From: Methylobacterium oryzae
Lineage (GTDB): Bacteria; Pseudomonadota; Alphaproteobacteria; Rhizobiales; Beijerinckiaceae
Reading direction: 5' to 3'
Length of the DNA: 64,000 bases
Assembly: GCF_021398735.1 (NCBI RefSeq)
Contig: NZ_CP090349.1
Coordinates: 874,501 to 938,500 of the forward strand
The notes below the pieces were generated by a model that ran no database searches, was not told the origin of the DNA, and saw nothing but the letters and a program-made list of their open reading frames with translations. Both the position numbers and the translations under genes were made by a program. Positions within the stretch are counted from its first letter, which is position 1. Every line of letters begins with the position of its first letter. This document shows positions 21,705 to 27,933 of the stretch, in pieces.

Positions 21705-22652
21705 TCAGGCGCGCCGGCCGGCCGTGCGCCCGGTCGGCGAGCGCCCGACGAGCTTCCGGAACGTGCGGCTCATGGCACTGGCGCTCGTGAAGCCCGATCG
21801 CGCGGCGACCTCCGCCATCGATCCCGCGCCGGAGCGGATCAGGGCCTCGGCCCGGCCGACGCGCTCGCGCATGATGTACTGGTAGGGCGTGACCCCGGTG
21901 GTCTGGCGGAAGGCTCGGATGAAGTAGCCCTCGCTGAGCCCGACGATGCCGGCCAGGGCGGAGACGGTGATCTCCCGGTCCAGGTGCTCCCGGATATACG
22001 CGCAGGCCCGCCCGGCCTGCGACGCCGAGAGGTCGGGCGCCGCCGACCGGCCCGGAGCGCGCGCGGCGACGACCGAGCGCAGGATCGCCAGGTGGAGGCT
22101 CTCGATCAGCAGCGCGTCGGGCGACGGGTCGTCCCGGTGCGCGCAAGCCAGCGCGTCGAGGATGTGCCAGGTGCTGCGGCAGGCGCGGAGATCGCGCCCG
22201 TCCGCCGCGAAGGCGATCTTGCCGATCGGCGCCTCGGCCAGCCGCTCGACGGCGGCGGCCGAGAAGGAGAGGACGCGGCCGGCATACGGGCCCGCCCAAC
22301 GGGTCGTGCCGTTCAGGCCGGGACGCCGGACCAGCAGGCCCTCGCGCTCGCTCAGCCGCGCCGCGATCTCGTAATCGACCGCGTGGTGCGCCCCCGCGGG
22401 CTGCGTGCTGGCGGCGACCTCGAGGCCCGTGACCGCGTGCGTGCTCCACCCGCCGGTCGGGAAGCGGAAATCGATGAAGGCGACCTCCGGGAGGCCGCGG
22501 TCGCTCGGTGCGTAGCAGGTCAGCTCGGGGCGGCCGGAGAGATGCCCGGTGCTGCCGCTCGTTGCGTACGCGATCGTCTCGGCTGTGGTCGCGGCTGAAC
22601 TCTCGGCTGTGCTGTCCATGCGGGCCCGTGATTCCGGTGTCGTCGCGGTCAC
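21705..22652 (-). CDS. AraC-family transcriptional regulator
   Basis: A 315-residue protein. The C-terminal two-HTH domain is clear: REITVSALAGIVGLSEGYFIRAF-QTTGVTPYQYIMRERV and AEVAARSGFTSASAMSRTFRKLVGRSP. The first 200 residues form a sensor domain I cannot classify. The start is a GTG at 22652; an internal ATG at 22619 (MDSTAESS) is possible, and neither has a strong ribosome site. The low-complexity Ser/Thr/Ala N-terminus supports the later start. It lies just downstream, in the same direction, of the double-glycine peptide gene and is separated from it by a hairpin. Whether it regulates that gene is unknown. Confidence 0.88.
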   Translation of the reverse strand: MTATTPESRARMDSTAESSAATTAETIAYATSGSTGHLSGRPELTCYAPSDRGLPEVAFIDFRFPTGGWSTHAVTGLEVAASTQPAGAHHAVDYEIAARLSEREGLLVRRPGLNGTTRWAGPYAGRVLSFSAAAVERLAEAPIGKIAFAADGRDLRACRSTWHILDALACAHRDDPSPDALLIESLHLAILRSVVAARAPGRSAAPDLSASQAGRACAYIREHLDREITVSALAGIVGLSEGYFIRAFRQTTGVTPYQYIMRERVGRAEALIRSGAGSMAEVAARSGFTSASAMSRTFRKLVGRSPTGRTAGRRA

Positions 22653-22665
22653 GCCCCGCGACGGA

Positions 22666-22691
22666 GGAGGGCGGCCCCGCGGCCGCCCTCC
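22666..22691 (-). terminator. hairpin terminator of the peptide gene
   Basis: GGAGGGCGGCC, loop CCGC, GGCCGCCCTCC: a perfect 11-bp stem with a 4-base loop, 13 bases beyond the stop of the peptide gene at 22705. It would end the short peptide transcript before the AraC gene. The structure closely resembles the hairpin at 18176-18201. Confidence 0.7.
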
Positions 22692-22704
22692 CGGTGTCAG
22701 ACCG

Positions 22705-22935
22705 TCAGCGCAGGGAGCCGGTCACGCCGCCGACGACACCGCCGACCGCGCCGAGCACGCTGCCCACCAGGCCGCTCACCAGACCGCCGACCTGGCCCAC
22801 GACCCCCGAGACCGCACCGAGCTCCTGGCTCGCGTCGACCCCGAGGCCGACAGTGAGGCCGACCCCGAGGCCACCGCCGACCTGGTCCAGCTCGGCGGCG
22901 CTCAGCTCGCGGACGGTATCGATGCTGTCCTGCAT
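22705..22935 (-). CDS. double-glycine-leader peptide, candidate class II microcin precursor
   Basis: A 76-residue peptide. Residues 1-22 (MQDSIDTVRELSAAELDQVGGG) fit the double-glycine leader consensus, with REL, then xEL, then V-x-GG. Cleavage is expected after Gly22, or one residue earlier. The 54-residue core has no cysteine, one Arg at the very end and two acidic residues near its start. It is very rich in Gly, Val, Leu and Ser, with glycines every 3-4 residues from 40 to 73 (GAVSGVVGQVGGLVSGL and on). GGAG lies 8 bases before the ATG. It is encoded divergently from a CvaA-like adaptor and a C39-peptidase ABC exporter, the machinery that cuts and exports such peptides. It could be an antimicrobial microcin or a signal peptide. 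No immunity gene is recognisable. Confidence 0.85.
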   Translation of the reverse strand: MQDSIDTVRELSAAELDQVGGGLGVGLTVGLGVDASQELGAVSGVVGQVGGLVSGLVGSVLGAVGGVVGGVTGSLR

Positions 22936-23487
22936 GATCGTTCTCCAGATTGAGATTCAGGTAGAAGGTTATTTGCTTCGATCTATTGCCTGATCGTAGC
23001 GTCTAGGCGCCTTGGACGTCGGCACCTGCCTTTAGGATTACAGAGATGTGCTTCGTGTCAATCGGTCATGGCCAGCCGATAATGCTCGCGGACGATCGAG
23101 CCCGGCCAATGCGCAAAAACTGACAGGCCTTGTCTTTCCCAGGCCGTGCTCCAGACGCTGTCGGCACTGCGGCCGCCTGCGCTGCGAAGCGGCGCGTCTC
23201 ACCGCGTCTCACGCCGTCGAGTTTTCGCAGCGCAGCACGCGATGATGCAAAAACTGACGTCCTGTTGCGCTGCAAAGTAAGCTCGACGACGAACCGGAAT
23301 AAGCCGTTGAAATACAGACGGTTTTCAACACGTGCGCGACGTTCTGACGCGGCCAGGATTATTCAAAATTCGCCGTGTCGGCAAGTGTTGACATGAAACT
23401 CCCGTGATGCGACCGAGTAAGGTGGCAAATGCGCTGAGCATTGTCCTCGAATACGGCTGTCTCCTTCAGGAAGGTTGCTTTCTCCGG
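22936..23487. promoter_or_regulatory. divergent control region of the peptide-export locus
   Basis: About 550 bases between the peptide gene and the exporter genes, holding no convincing gene. It contains an exact 12-base direct repeat, GCAAAAACTGAC, at 23113-23124 and 23247-23258, 134 bases apart. It also has an inverted repeat GTTGAAA/TTTCAAC at 23306-23312 and 23323-23329, and a TTGACA hexamer at 23388-23393 pointing towards the exporter genes. No good -10 can be placed after it. The composition at 23230-23400 is lower in GC than the surroundings. Confidence 0.5.
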
Positions 23488-24804
23488 GTGCCAAGTCCGC
23501 TCTTTCGACTTGAGGTTATCGAGGCGCGACGCAACGCGTGGCTGGGCGAGGCGCAGATCATCCAGCCTCTGCCGGTCCGCCTCGTGGCCGCGGCCTGCGT
23601 GATCATGGTGGCGGCGGTCGGCCTGTATGGCTGGCAGGGCACCTACACGCGCCGCATCCACGCCGTCGGCCTTCTCGCGCCCGATATCGGGCTGATCAGC
23701 CTCGCCAGCCCGGTGGCGGGGCGCGTCGGCTCGACCGGCGTCCGCGAGGGCGACAAGGTCGCGCGCGGGCAGCTCCTGTACACGATCGACCTCGACGCCG
23801 TGTCGGCGAGCGGCCCCACGCAGGAGCGCGTGATCGCCGAGCTGGAGCGCCAGCGCCAGAGCGTCGAGCGGCAGCGGACCGCCCGGGCCGATCTGGCCGG
23901 CACGGAGCGGCAGGCGCTGCGCGAGCAGGTGGCGAATCTGAGCGAGCAGTCGGCCCAGCTCGCCAAGCAGATCGACCTGCAGGACAAGCTCGTGCCGCCG
24001 CTCCGGGCGCGGGTCGAGGAACTCGCCGACGCCGTGGCGCGCGGCTACGCCCGCGCCGCCGACTTCCAGAGCCAGAACTACCTCTACATGCAGGCGAGCG
24101 CGCAGCTCGCCCAGTTCCAGCAGAGCCGCCTCCAGATCGACGGCAAGCTCGCCGACACGAAGTCCCAGCTCGCCGCCTACGACGACCGGTTGGCCCGCGA
24201 CCTCGCCGACCTCGACCGGACCGCCGCCCAGCTGGCGCAGCAGAAGGCCGAGAGCGAGGCGCGCCGCGCCATCGAGGTCCGGGCGCCGGAGGCCGGGACC
24301 CTGACGTCGATCCGCGCGCAGGTCGGCCAGACCGTGGCGGCCGGGGCGACGCTCCTGACCCTGCTGCCGAGCGCCGGGCGCCTCCAGGCCAACCTGTTCG
24401 TCGATTCGTCGGCCATCGGCTTCGCCGAGGCCGGCGCGCCCGTGATGCTGCGCTACGCCGCCTTCCCGTTCCAGCGCTTCGGCCTGCACCGCGGCGTCGT
24501 CACCGAGGTCACGCGGGCGCCGCTGGGCAGCGACGACGCGCCCGACTTCGCGCGGCGCGCCGCCGCCCGGGGGGAGGGGACCGACCTCTACCGCATCGTG
24601 GTCCGGCCCGATTCCGACACCGTGCTGGCCTACGGCGAGCGGCGCAGCCTCGAGGCGGGCATGCGCGTCGAGGCCGACATCGCCCTGGAGAAGCGGTCGC
24701 TCTACCGCTGGCTGCTCGATCCCGTGACGCATGTCCGGGAGAGCCTCGCCCTCGTCACGCGCGGCGGCCTCGACGCCCTGCCGGTCCGGAAGGCCGCCCC
24801 GTGA
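23488..24804 (+). CDS. HlyD-family adaptor of a peptide exporter (CvaA-like)
   Basis: A 438-residue membrane-fusion protein. The start region PLFRLEVIEARRNAWLGEAQIIQPL matches the beginning of colicin V secretion protein CvaA, so I start at the GTG at 23488; the frame is open to a GTG at 23404, giving 28 more residues of uncertain status. A membrane anchor follows (VRLVAAACVIMVAAVGLYGW). Then come a lipoyl half (LASPVAGRVGSTGVREGDKV), a long coiled-coil hairpin (IAELERQRQSVERQRTA to QLAQQKAESEARR), the second half (RAPEAGTLTSIRAQVGQTV) and a barrel. It overlaps the ABC exporter start by 4 bases (GTGA). It would link that exporter to an outer-membrane channel such as TolC, which is not in this window. 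Confidence 0.93.
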   Translation: MPSPLFRLEVIEARRNAWLGEAQIIQPLPVRLVAAACVIMVAAVGLYGWQGTYTRRIHAVGLLAPDIGLISLASPVAGRVGSTGVREGDKVARGQLLYTIDLDAVSASGPTQERVIAELERQRQSVERQRTARADLAGTERQALREQVANLSEQSAQLAKQIDLQDKLVPPLRARVEELADAVARGYARAADFQSQNYLYMQASAQLAQFQQSRLQIDGKLADTKSQLAAYDDRLARDLADLDRTAAQLAQQKAESEARRAIEVRAPEAGTLTSIRAQVGQTVAAGATLLTLLPSAGRLQANLFVDSSAIGFAEAGAPVMLRYAAFPFQRFGLHRGVVTEVTRAPLGSDDAPDFARRAAARGEGTDLYRIVVRPDSDTVLAYGERRSLEAGMRVEADIALEKRSLYRWLLDPVTHVRESLALVTRGGLDALPVRKAAP

Positions 24805-26945
24805 CGGCGCCGTCCCTCGCCGCCCGGCTGGATTTCGGGCTCCGCCGCCGGGTGCCGGTCGTCCTCCAGGCCGAGGCCGCCGAGTGCGGCATGGCCTGCC
24901 TCGCCATGGTCCTGGCCTATCACGGGCGCCAGATCGACCTCGCGACGCTGCGGCGGCGCCATCCCCTGTCCCTCAAGGGCATGACCCTGCGCAACCTGAT
25001 CGACCTCTGCGGCGCCCAGGGCCTGACCGCCCGCGCGCTCCGGGTCGAGCTCACGGACCTGCCCCGCCTCCGGTTGCCCTGCATCCTGCACTGGGGCCTC
25101 AACCACTTCGTGGTGCTGACCCGGGTCGAGCGCGGCGGCCTCGTCATCAACGATCCGGGCCGCGGCCGGCGGCGGATCAGCCTCGCGGAGGCCTCGCGGG
25201 AATTCACCGGCGTCGCCCTGGAGGCGGTGCCCAATCCGGGCTTCCGGCGCGAGCGGGCCGCCCCGGGCCTGCGGCTGCGCGACCTGTTCCGCAACATGGC
25301 CGGCATCCGCGCGGTTCTGGCCCAGGTCCTGGCCCTCTCCCTCGGGATCGAGCTCGTCGCCCTCCTGATGCCCATCGCCTCGCAGGTCGTCATCGACGAG
25401 GTGATCGTGAACGCCGACCACGACCTGCTCCTCGTGGTGGCGATCGGCCTCGCGCTGCTGCTGCTGCTCCAGCTCGGCCTCAGCATCGCCCGCACCTGGG
25501 CGATCATGCTGGCCGGGACCCGGCTGAACTACCAGTGGTCGGCCGGCCTGTTCGACCACCTGTCGCGGCTGCCCCTCGACTACTTCGAGAAGCGCCATGT
25601 CGGCGACGTGATCTCGCGGTTCGGCTCCCTCGCCACCATCCAGAAGGGCCTGACGACCGATCTCGTCCAGGCCATGCTCGACGGGCTCATGGCGGTCGGC
25701 ATGCTGGTGATGCTGACGGTCTACGGCGGCTGGCTGGTCGCCGTGGTCCTGGCCTCGACGGCGCTCAACGCGGTCCTGCGGGTCTTCGCCTACGGCGCGT
25801 ACCGGGAGGGGAGCGAGGAGGCCCTCGTGGCCGAGGCCCGCCAGCAGACGCACTTCATCGAGACGGTCCGCGGCATGGCGAGCGTCAAGCTCCTCGACCT
25901 GCGCGAGCGGCGCGGCGGCGCCTGGATGAACCACTTCGTCACGGCCCTGAACGCCCGGCTGCGGCTGCAGCGCCTCGACCTCGTGTTCGGCCGCGCGAAC
26001 GAGTTCCTGTTCGGCCTCGACCGGCTGATCCTGCTGGTGCTCGGCGCCCGCGCGGTCATCGGCGGGTCCCTGTCGCTCGGGATGCTGGTGGCGTTCCTGG
26101 CCTATCGCGACCAGTTCGCCACCCGGATCGGCAGCCTGATCGACGCGTGGTTCAAGCTGCGCATGCTCGACGTGCAGACCGACCGGCTCGCCGACATCGT
26201 GCTGTGCGAGCCGGAGGAGCAGGATCTCGCCGCCGGGGCGCGGCCGGGGGCGCCCCCGGTCGTCGCCCTGAAGGCCGGAACGCTCGCCGGCGCGGGCCTG
26301 GCGCTGCGCTACGGGGCCGACGAGCCCTGGATCTTCCGCGGCGTCTCGCTGTCCGTCCGGGCCGGCGCGTGCTTCGCGATCACCGGTCCCTCGGGATGCG
26401 GCAAGACCTCGCTCATGAAGGTGATGATGGGGCTGACGCCGCCCAGCGAGGGGATCGTCACCGCCGACGGCCAGGACATCCGCACCGCCGCCGGGTCCTA
26501 CAGGCGCCGGATCGCCGGCGTGATGCAGAGCGACGGCCTGTTCGCCGGCTCGATCGCCGAGAACATCGCGGCCTTCGACGAGCATCCGGACGCGGGCTGG
26601 ATCGCCGAGTGCGCCGCCCGGGCGGCGATCCTGGACGACATCCGCCGCATGCCCATGGGCTTCGAGAGCCTCGTCGGCGACATGGGCTCGACCCTGTCGG
26701 GCGGCCAGAAGCAGCGCATCGTGCTGGCGCGCGCCCTCTACCGGCGGCCCGAGATCCTGTTCCTCGACGAGGCCACGAGCCACCTCGACGAGGCCACCGA
26801 GGCGGTGATCGCCCAGGCCCTGCGCGACCTGCGGATGACGCGGGTCATCGTCGCCCACCGCCCGGCGACGATCGCCCACGCGGACGCGGTGTTCGATTTC
26901 CCCGCCCAGGTCCGCGACCGGGCGGATCTCGCCGCCGCGGGCTGA
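24801..26945 (+). CDS. peptidase-containing ABC exporter (CvaB/C39 type)
   Basis: A 714-residue protein with three domains. The N-terminal C39 peptidase has Gln23, Cys29 in AECGMACL, His102 in LNHFVVL and Asp118 in NDPGRG, so the leader-cutting triad is complete. The membrane domain covers about residues 165-450 (VLALSLGIELVALLMPIASQ, YFEKRHVGDVISRFGS). The ATPase domain has Walker A GPSGCGKTS near 529, signature LSGGQKQRIVLARAL near 632, Walker B EILFLDEATSHLD and a switch His in VIVAHRPA. Such exporters remove double-glycine leaders and secrete the core peptide; the peptide at 22705-22935 is the obvious cargo. The GTG start at 24801 overlaps the adaptor stop. Confidence 0.96.
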   Translation: MTAPSLAARLDFGLRRRVPVVLQAEAAECGMACLAMVLAYHGRQIDLATLRRRHPLSLKGMTLRNLIDLCGAQGLTARALRVELTDLPRLRLPCILHWGLNHFVVLTRVERGGLVINDPGRGRRRISLAEASREFTGVALEAVPNPGFRRERAAPGLRLRDLFRNMAGIRAVLAQVLALSLGIELVALLMPIASQVVIDEVIVNADHDLLLVVAIGLALLLLLQLGLSIARTWAIMLAGTRLNYQWSAGLFDHLSRLPLDYFEKRHVGDVISRFGSLATIQKGLTTDLVQAMLDGLMAVGMLVMLTVYGGWLVAVVLASTALNAVLRVFAYGAYREGSEEALVAEARQQTHFIETVRGMASVKLLDLRERRGGAWMNHFVTALNARLRLQRLDLVFGRANEFLFGLDRLILLVLGARAVIGGSLSLGMLVAFLAYRDQFATRIGSLIDAWFKLRMLDVQTDRLADIVLCEPEEQDLAAGARPGAPPVVALKAGTLAGAGLALRYGADEPWIFRGVSLSVRAGACFAITGPSGCGKTSLMKVMMGLTPPSEGIVTADGQDIRTAAGSYRRRIAGVMQSDGLFAGSIAENIAAFDEHPDAGWIAECAARAAILDDIRRMPMGFESLVGDMGSTLSGGQKQRIVLARALYRRPEILFLDEATSHLDEATEAVIAQALRDLRMTRVIVAHRPATIAHADAVFDFPAQVRDRADLAAAG

Positions 26946-26964: not shown

Positions 26965-27933
26965 CTAGGGGAGCGCGGGCCGGAGGTCGCCCGGGGCCAG
27001 GCCGAAGCGCTTGCGGAAGCCGCGGTTGAAGGTCGGCACGTCGGTGAAGCCGCACGCGTAGGCGATCGAGGCGATCCGCAGCTTGTCGTCGCGGCGGGCC
27101 TCGAGGCGCCGGCGCGCGAGGTCGAGGCGCGCGTCGCGGATCGCCGCCGCGATGCCGCCGGTCTCCGCGAAGGCGCGGTACAGGCTGGTCCGGGAGAGAC
27201 CGAGCGCGCGCTGGATGTCCTGCGGGTTCAGGTCGGGATCGTGCATCCGCCGCGCGATGTGGGCGCGGGCGAGCGACACGACGGCCGCCTGCGAGACCGC
27301 CTCCGGATCGCCGCGCCGGGCCGCGCCGTCGACGAGGTGGCCGAGGAGGTGGAGCACGCCCTCGACGGCCGCCTGCGCCTCGTCGGCGGACATCCAGGCG
27401 ACCGAGCCGGCCACCCCGCGCAGCCGCGCCCGAACCTCCGCCCCGGCCGGGAGCGGGCCGAGGCTGCGGCCCGCGAAGGCGTCGGCGTCGCCGACGAAAG
27501 CCTCGAACATCTTGCGCGGGACGGCGAGGCGGATCTCGCCGTAGGCGCTCTGGGTGCCGGCCACGAAGGGCCGGTTCCGCGTCAGGAAGCTGATGTCGCC
27601 GGGGGTCAGCTGGGCCCCGCGGCCGTTCTGTTCCTGGTAGCCGACGCCGTCGAGCGCGAGGCCGATCACCACCATCCCGCGGGCGTTCCGGTCGACGTGG
27701 CGGGAGCGGAACTCCACCGCGACCGGGCTGCTCACCGTGTGGGTCAGCGACCAGCCGGCCGAGGCCACGCTCAGGCGCTTGGCCGCGAACCGCTCCCGGG
27801 GGTGCCGCCGGCCGATGTCGCCGAACCCGGCCAGGGCCGTGCAGCGCCAGAACTCGAAGGTCTGCTTGGGGTCGACGTGGCTGGTCGTCTCGACGAGGCT
27901 CGGGACGAGCACCGGGCTAGACACGTGTGACAC
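26965..27933 (-). CDS. AraC-family transcriptional regulator
   Basis: A protein of up to 322 residues. The N-terminal 200 residues form an AraC_binding_2-like sensor (RHVDRNARGMVVIGLALDG, QLTPGDISFLTRNRPF). The C-terminal HTH pair is NPQDIQRALGLSRTSLYRAF and RIASIAYACGFTDVPTFNRGFRK. It is the same class as the truncated gene at the left edge. The start is uncertain: GTG at 27933 or GTG at 27924, both within a TCACACGTG motif. It is convergent with the peptide exporter, 19 bases away, so it may or may not belong to that locus. Confidence 0.9.
   Translation of the reverse strand: MSHVSSPVLVPSLVETTSHVDPKQTFEFWRCTALAGFGDIGRRHPRERFAAKRLSVASAGWSLTHTVSSPVAVEFRSRHVDRNARGMVVIGLALDGVGYQEQNGRGAQLTPGDISFLTRNRPFVAGTQSAYGEIRLAVPRKMFEAFVGDADAFAGRSLGPLPAGAEVRARLRGVAGSVAWMSADEAQAAVEGVLHLLGHLVDGAARRGDPEAVSQAAVVSLARAHIARRMHDPDLNPQDIQRALGLSRTSLYRAFAETGGIAAAIRDARLDLARRRLEARRDDKLRIASIAYACGFTDVPTFNRGFRKRFGLAPGDLRPALP

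What the first reader, a model, noticed from the sequence alone, without database searches (positions are those of the whole stretch)
22705..26945. Candidate class II microcin / secreted peptide system with its own C39 exporter
A 76-residue peptide with a textbook double-glycine leader (VRELSAAELDQVGGG) is divergent from a CvaA-like adaptor and a CvaB-like ABC transporter whose C39 protease residues (Gln23, Cys29, His102, Asp118) are all present. Double-glycine peptides beside such exporters are matured and secreted as microcins or signals. I know of no described microcin with this Gly/Val-rich, cysteine-free 54-residue core, and colicin V-type systems are poorly described in this kind of bacterium. 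No immunity gene can be recognised, so either it lies elsewhere, is one of the small unrecognised frames, or the peptide is not self-toxic.
Basis: partly seen in the sequence, partly recalled or inferred. Interest (0 to 1): 0.88.

Follow-up and report, generated by a model that had tools for sequence, protein, structure and literature searches.

The report
Glycine-zipper peptide with its own exporter
Many methylotrophic bacteria carry the same small module: a glycine-rich peptide, the two-part pump expected to trim and export it and often a private gene switch, resembling a known contact-killing system of Caulobacter but with no recognisable protection gene beside it.

Summary
The 76-residue peptide has a canonical double-glycine leader and lies divergent from an HlyD-type adaptor and a C39 peptidase/ABC exporter with Q23, C29, H102 and D118 present. 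Among 111 same-genus genomes, the peptide (E 2e-15 or better) and the close exporter (74% identity or more) occur in exactly the same 43. A motif, CAAAAAYTGAC, lies between peptide and adaptor in 20 of the 22 genomes searched for it; 25 of all 42 matches in those genomes fall there. The core is conserved (dN/dS about 0.3 within the genus): an alternating hydrophobic segment, then a glycine zipper. No recurrent immunity-like gene was found near the peptide in 38 loci. It works most like the Caulobacter Cdz glycine-zipper system: the peptide is probably exported, trimmed and kept at the surface, where it may act on neighbours' membranes. Toxicity is unproven; a surface-building role is a serious rival. 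New variant of a known kind.

The parts
22705..22935 (-). 76-aa precursor (stop codon included in the coordinates): leader 1-22 ending in GG; mature core 23-76 = alternating hydrophobic/glycine segment (about 23-36) then glycine-zipper segment (about 49-74); no Cys, no Pro
21705..22652 (-). AraC-family regulator (N-terminal beta-strand domain plus C-terminal HTH), starting 52 bp after the peptide stop; found at E 1e-25 only in carriers of the module (32 of 43 carriers, 0 of 68 others)
22665..22692 (-). stable stem-loop between peptide stop and regulator start; the 75 bases 22630-22704 fold at z = -3.7 against dinucleotide shuffles; no T-tract
23114..23124 (+). candidate operator copy 1, CAAAAACTGAC
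23248..23258 (+). candidate operator copy 2, CAAAAACTGAC, 134 bp from copy 1
23488..24804 (+). HlyD/CvaA-type periplasmic adaptor (membrane fusion protein)
24801..26945 (+). C39 peptidase-containing ABC exporter; Q23, C29, H102, D118; overlaps the adaptor stop by 4 bp

Best explanation
The module makes and exports one glycine-zipper peptide. The AraC-type regulator, probably binding the CAAAAAYTGAC sites in the shared intergenic region, switches on the peptide and the exporter. The C39 domain cuts the 22-residue leader after GG while the ABC exporter, the adaptor and an unlinked TolC-type channel move the 54-residue core to the outside. The strand-prone start and the glycine-striped segment of the core let it aggregate and insert into membranes. 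As with Caulobacter CdzC/CdzD, it most likely stays on the producer's surface and damages the envelope of touching cells, with self-protection not encoded beside it. Shown: gene content, exclusive pairing of peptide and exporter, dedicated regulator, core conservation. Inferred: cleavage, surface retention, operator function, membrane activity, target.
For: Peptide and close exporter in exactly the same 43 of 111 genus genomes. Peptide and exporter distances covary (Mantel r 0.87, 0 of 2000 permutations, n 37). A leader query finds one meaningful hit in the own genome, so probably one cargo. Catalytic residues intact. Glycine face at 100 degrees non-random (p 0.0002 for window residues 43-76; p 0.0085 or less in 7 of 7 chosen homologues). 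Size, GG leader, uninterrupted zipper, short polar tail, exporter operon divergent in the window (and in 30 of 38 loci) and 1-2 peptides per locus match what the Cdz paper lists (PMC5380434: abstract, sections 5, 13, 16, 18, 32 and found passages read). Bacteriocin_IIc (PF10439) matches 10 of 22 homologues at E up to 1, best 1.8e-5. AraC matches only at this locus; motif at this locus in 20 of 22 genomes.
Against: No CdzI-like or other recurrent small membrane gene near the peptide in 38 loci, whereas in Caulobacter cdzI alone could not be deleted. The core is conserved (core dN/dS about 0.31 within the genus), not diversified as expected of arms-race toxins. The window peptide itself does not match PF10439 at E up to 1. 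AraC is missing in 11 of 43 carriers and the motif is absent from all 8 fetched AraC loci with plus-strand peptides; its TTGAC form resembles a -35 box, so it could be a promoter element. Many Methylorubrum-group members carry an acidic residue inside the zipper, and Hansschlegelia-type homologues a Pro near the end. No expression or activity data.
Confidence: 0.45

Rival explanations
1. Surface-building peptide: the exported core is not a toxin but self-assembles (glycine zipper plus strand segment, functional-amyloid-like) into a coat or matrix on the producer, helping adhesion or protection on plant surfaces.
For: No recurrent immunity candidate in the 38 loci examined; core under purifying selection within the genus and recognisably conserved in other genera; tandem near-identical copies in 7 loci, as expected for dosage; strand plus zipper pattern in 7 of 7 chosen homologues; the Cdz paper says glycine zippers are often found in amyloids and that CdzC aggregates on cells.
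Against: Leader and exporter belong to the bacteriocin-export kind; 68 of 111 genus genomes do without the module; I know of no structural peptide using such an exporter (recalled).
Confidence: 0.27
2. Signal peptide: the exported core is a pheromone and the AraC regulator is part of an autoregulatory circuit that measures it directly or through a surface sensor.
For: Regulator found only with the module and next to the peptide; candidate operator concentrated at this locus; of 9 annotated alphaproteobacterial plasmid regions read around more distant exporters, 6 have a response regulator plus a kinase (annotated as hybrid histidine kinase in 4, as ATP-binding protein in 2).
Against: A 54-residue hydrophobic core is unlike known pheromones (recalled); no receptor gene is linked; 11 of 43 carriers lack the regulator; AraC sensor domains usually bind small molecules (recalled; nearest folds include fatty-acid-bound ToxT and Rns, weak whole-chain TM 0.27-0.31).
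Confidence: 0.13
3. Diffusible class II microcin or bacteriocin with an unlinked or lineage-specific immunity gene.
For: GG leader, C39 exporter and adaptor; weak PF10439 and PF17508 (MccV, 7 of 22, best E 0.013) matches among homologues.
Against: No immunity candidate near the peptide; conserved, hydrophobic, glycine-zipper core.
Confidence: 0.12

Closest known systems
Caulobacter CdzABCDI contact-dependent glycine-zipper bacteriocin (PMC5380434)
   Same: Small GG-leader peptides with glycine zippers; own type I exporter and adaptor in a divergent operon; one or two peptides per locus
   Different: No CdzI-like immunity gene found; an AraC regulator and candidate operator instead; core conserved between genera. 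No killing data; CdzC/D sequences not compared directly
Class II microcins such as microcin V (CvaC with CvaA/CvaB)
   Same: GG leader, C39 exporter, HlyD-type adaptor, unlinked TolC assumed
   Different: No immunity candidate found; glycine-zipper core; no Cys; only weak profile matches (PF17508 best E 0.013 among 22 homologues)
Pfam Bacteriocin_IIc (PF10439)
   Same: 10 of 22 homologues match at E up to 1, best 1.8e-5; one database member (P0029) carries the precomputed domain
   Different: The window peptide itself gives no PF10439 match
NHLP-type and other C39 bacteriocin exporters (TIGR03796 and kin)
   Same: Full-length match of the ABC exporter (TIGR03796, 462.8 bits)
   Different: Below the curated cut-off (853.3 bits), as for the other families shown for this protein
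Kinase/response-regulator-linked C39 exporters of Rhizobium, Phyllobacterium and Paracoccus plasmids
   Same: Exporter about 49-50% identical, dedicated regulator nearby, GG-type peptide nearby
   Different: Two-component system in place of AraC; unrelated peptide cores

Membership tests
Cdz-like systems | peptide of 60-151 residues | tested here: met
   76 aa; among fetched loci most are 66-79 aa, with L085 at 55 aa and L099 at 52 aa (contig end) below the range
Cdz-like systems | leader ending in G[G/A/S] | tested here: met
   GG at 21-22, invariant in the 22 aligned members
Cdz-like systems | one or two glycine zippers not interrupted by Pro or charge | tested here: met
   Window residues 49-74 carry none; many Methylorubrum-group members have a D in the segment, so met for the window but not for every homologue
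[quoted passage not shown]
   ends GSLR
Cdz-like systems | type I exporter and adaptor within 10 kb (in Caulobacter, divergent) | tested here: met
   peptide divergent from the exporter in the window and in 30 of 38 fetched loci, co-directional in 8
Cdz-like systems | small transmembrane immunity protein (CdzI) next to the toxin | tested here: not met
   no recurrent candidate in 38 loci; the Cdz paper says such proteins were only sometimes found near predicted relatives
Cdz-like systems | surface retention and contact-dependent killing | not testable with these tools
   needs culture work
Cdz-like systems | sequence or profile match to CdzC/CdzD | not tested
Class II microcins | GG leader plus C39 exporter and adaptor | tested here: met
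Class II microcins | adjacent immunity gene | tested here: not met
   within their limits
Class II microcins | antibacterial activity | not testable with these tools
   needs assay
Pfam PF10439 Bacteriocin_IIc | window peptide matches the family model | tested here: not met
   no match for the window peptide at E up to 1; whole own genome: only one match, elsewhere, 10.9 bits against a cut-off of 27.1
Peptidase-containing ABC transporters (PCAT) | N-terminal C39 domain with catalytic Q/C/H/D fused to ABC membrane and ATPase domains | tested here: met
   solved full-length relatives 4ry2, 8vp3, 8hf4

The most novel reading that the evidence does not exclude
A bacteriocin-type exporter and leader have been turned to a non-toxic use: an AraC-controlled, immunity-free, strongly conserved glycine-zipper peptide that self-assembles on the surface of methylotrophic alphaproteobacteria as a structural coat.
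Probability: 0.25. Interest if true: 0.72.

Novelty: new variant of a known kind. Interest (0 to 1): 0.52.

Why it matters
Methylobacterium and Methylorubrum are common leaf bacteria with genetically tractable laboratory strains (recalled). The module gives them a defined secreted peptide, apparently the exporter's only cargo, with its own regulator and a testable candidate operator. It bears on two questions: whether Cdz-like contact systems are common in alphaproteobacteria, and whether such peptides can be conserved without an adjacent immunity gene, which would mean either unlinked protection or a non-toxic role.

Tried and rejected
Rejected: (1) Chance or antisense frame: codon composition, dN/dS and exact co-occurrence with the exporter speak against it. 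(2) A conserved hidden immunity ORF: 1456 small frames around 38 loci were clustered; the recurrent clusters seen (4 or more loci, at most 45 clusters viewed) are peptide frames, frames antisense to the peptide or AraC gene, frames of or antisense to neighbouring genes, and clade-limited frames in the peptide-adaptor gap, these last without a strongly hydrophobic segment (assigned by position, not by a further test). A scan for frames with a hydrophobic segment gave 8: two extra peptide copies and six frames not shared between lineages. A hydrophilic, unlinked or lineage-specific immunity gene would be missed. (3) A second cleavage site at the core's QVGGL: V is not at -4, so the match is poor (inspection). 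(4) The AraC at 26965-27933 as part of the system: found at this place in only 4 of 40 loci. (5) Several cargos: the leader query gave one meaningful hit, the next at E 2.2 inside a 365-aa frame. (6) sigma-70 promoter scan: 1 site against 0.2 expected, not informative. (7) Peptide structure: one long helix, mean pLDDT 67.6, not used for a fold search. (8) Plasmid spread of the close form: of 743 plasmid records with a match at E 1e-120, only one (Methylobacterium bullatum 'plasmid 1', 2.8 Mb) is 60% identical or more.

Rows dropped and limits: 38 of 43 carrier loci were fetched wide (not G008, G037, G043, G079, G099). Four genomes (G006, G035, G083, G100) have only weak peptide matches (E 0.0045-0.0099) inside or as part of other frames and are counted as non-carriers. 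The G099 exporter match covers residues 5-498 only. A2 used 22 of 26 AraC loci; L100's AraC frame contains stops and was left out, unmended. dN/dS used 743 non-independent pairs with pS 0.05-0.6 and excluded the four divergent second peptides. Zipper and strand segments were chosen by eye before the shuffle tests, so those p values are optimistic. The motif was found by eye in alignments before being counted. Tree support values were not examined. The kinase-like gene in L105 was recognised by eye only.

Full report
What is there. The window lies in a 6.65-Mb genome (G000:C1:874501-938500) that belongs with Methylobacterium: the closest named match of the peptide is Methylobacterium sp. UNC378MF (L110). 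The exporter has the C39 residues Q23, C29, H102 and D118, Walker A, LSGGQ and Walker B, C39 and ABC Pfam domains, and solved full-length PCAT relatives, although ABCB1 chains score as high on the ABC part. It stays below the NCBIfam cut-offs shown (best TIGR03796, 462.8 of 853.3 bits).

It is a real pair. In 111 same-genus genomes the peptide (E 2e-15 or better) is found in 43, and the close exporter (74% identity or more) in the same 43. Of the other 68, four have only weak peptide matches (E 0.0045-0.0099), and two (G030, G106) have only distant exporters (46-51%) at E 1e-120. Of 40 loci fetched wide, 38 hold one or two GG peptides upstream of the exporter; in the two distant ones none of this family was seen, though L105 has an unrelated GG peptide. 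A named-genome scan gave 30 loci in Methylobacterium, Methylorubrum, Methylopila, Hansschlegelia, Chelatococcus, Chenggangzhangella, Methylovirgula and other MAGs. In 28 of them the peptide is beside adaptor and exporter. In L128 the contig start cuts the flank; in L138 only part of the exporter is held, and the peptide was not found by my leader pattern. In 397 sampled genomes of the same family, 34 match the peptide profile at E 0.001 or better: 24 of the own genus and 10 of five other genera, some weak. The large protein database gave 34 relatives at E 0.001. Peptide and exporter distances covary (Mantel r 0.87, 0 of 2000 permutations, n 37).

The peptide. The leader fits the C39 pattern with GG at 21-22. 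The core has no Cys in 48 peptides and no Pro in the 44 main-type ones; Hansschlegelia- and Chelatococcus-type homologues do have a Pro near the end. It has two parts that recur in 7 of 7 chosen homologues: an alternating hydrophobic segment (p 0.003 or less) and a glycine-striped segment (p 0.0085 or less) (window). AlphaFold gives one helix 13-75, with better confidence only towards the C-terminus. The core is under purifying selection within the genus (dN/dS about 0.31; leader 0.18; 743 non-independent pairs). Seven loci have tandem main-type copies, on the strand of the exporter; L080, L102 and L103 have a main copy plus a divergent second GG peptide, and L097 shows only the divergent one before its contig ends. 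I folded six chosen post-stop stretches against shuffles: the five after a last or only peptide have stem-loops at z -3.7 to -9.2, and the one after a first tandem copy does not (z 0.45). Not every locus is as strong: L094, L098 and L100 fold at only -27.5 to -30.9 kcal/mol over 80 bases. A stem-loop there would fit high peptide output relative to the genes that follow (inference).

The AraC-family gene 21705-22652 (-) starts 52 bp after the peptide stop. At E 1e-25 or better it occurs in 32 of 111 genomes, all among the 43 carriers, and the matches lie at this locus (for G039 the locus is split between contigs; G101's copy contains stops). Outside its nearest relatives it is divergent (26-40% identity) yet in the same place. 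Eleven carriers lack it: G007, G012, G013, G018, G022, G025, G033, G042, G047, G077, G102. The model shows an N-terminal beta domain and an AraC-type HTH; whole-chain hits are weak (TM 0.27-0.31), the DNA-binding domain is clear.

A candidate operator. CAAAAAYTGAC was noticed in alignments. It lies between peptide and adaptor in 17 of 27 AraC-bearing loci, in 0 of 11 without AraC, and nowhere else in those 38 loci. The eight AraC loci with plus-strand peptides all lack it; L091 and L092 have a one-base variant. In the 22 whole genomes of the AraC-downstream type there are 42 matches; 25 fall at this locus, in 20 of the 22 (my count from the listing), 17 fall elsewhere, and the reversed control pattern has 4 matches in all. 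In G000 there are 4 matches in 6.65 Mb, two of them at 23114 and 23248. Methylopila capsulata (L134), whose exporter nests inside the Methylobacterium exporters, has the AraC and the motif too (tree support not examined), which suggests transfer of the module. That AraC binds this motif is inference; its TTGAC form could also be part of a promoter.

No immunity gene found. Clustering of 1456 small frames around 38 loci and a hydrophobic-frame scan found no recurrent membrane protein near the peptide. In Caulobacter the three-TM protein CdzI is needed for immunity and could not be deleted alone (PMC5380434). An unlinked, hydrophilic or lineage-specific immunity protein cannot be excluded.

How it most likely works. 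The AraC protein controls the divergent promoters; C39 cuts after GG during export; the core, hydrophobic and zipper-bearing, aggregates at the surface and acts on neighbours' membranes. The first two steps follow from the families; the last is by analogy with CdzC/CdzD. The lack of a recurrent immunity candidate and the conserved core are real evidence against a toxin and in favour of a structural role, which I give about one chance in four.

Comparison and print. The Cdz paper's four peptide criteria and the exporter criterion are met by the window peptide; immunity is not met; killing is untested. The name 'Bacteriocin' is already attached to a Methylorubrum homologue in a database (P0006, truncated name). 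The Methylobacterium oryzae genome paper names four genes for a bacteriocin and transport system without detail (passages read); I did not establish whether it is this one. Searches of the held open-access library for double-glycine with Methylobacterium (one paper, a calcium review, seen in the listing only), Methylorubrum extorquens with bacteriocin (12 papers) and related term sets showed no description of this module in the titles and abstract starts listed or in the passages I read. Subscription journals are mostly not covered.

Noticed in passing
L168, L169, L171, L172, L174, L175: More distant relatives of this exporter (about 47-50% identical) on Paracoccus, Phyllobacterium, Rhizobium and Rhodobacter plasmids sit near a response regulator plus a kinase (hybrid histidine kinase in 4, 'ATP-binding protein' in 2): 6 of 9 annotated non-Methylobacterium regions read, of 742 records matched; unrelated GG-type peptides in some. 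Possible peptide-sensing circuits.
   Followed up: partly
L105 (G106): A same-genus genome has a 51% exporter with a kinase-like gene (recognised by eye) and an unrelated GG peptide, resembling the rhizobial arrangement.
   Followed up: no
L080, L097, L102, L103: A second, divergent GG peptide family (core starting QSELSVS or QSALSVS, with LNELIDTVH) occurs in four loci that lack the AraC gene; in L080, L102 and L103 it lies beside the main peptide.
   Followed up: partly
G000:C4:38304-38624 (L108): A second C39-like domain in the own genome on another contig (46.6 bits, over the Pfam cut-off), cargo unknown.
   Followed up: no
22665-22692: Strong stem-loop after the peptide stop, also seen after the last tandem copy in other loci; may set the ratio of peptide to downstream transcript.
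   Followed up: partly
L134: Methylopila capsulata carries the module (peptide, AraC, motif, exporter at 73%) nested within Methylobacterium in the exporter tree, unlike an uncultured Methylopila (L137, 51%): apparent transfer between lineages.
   Followed up: partly
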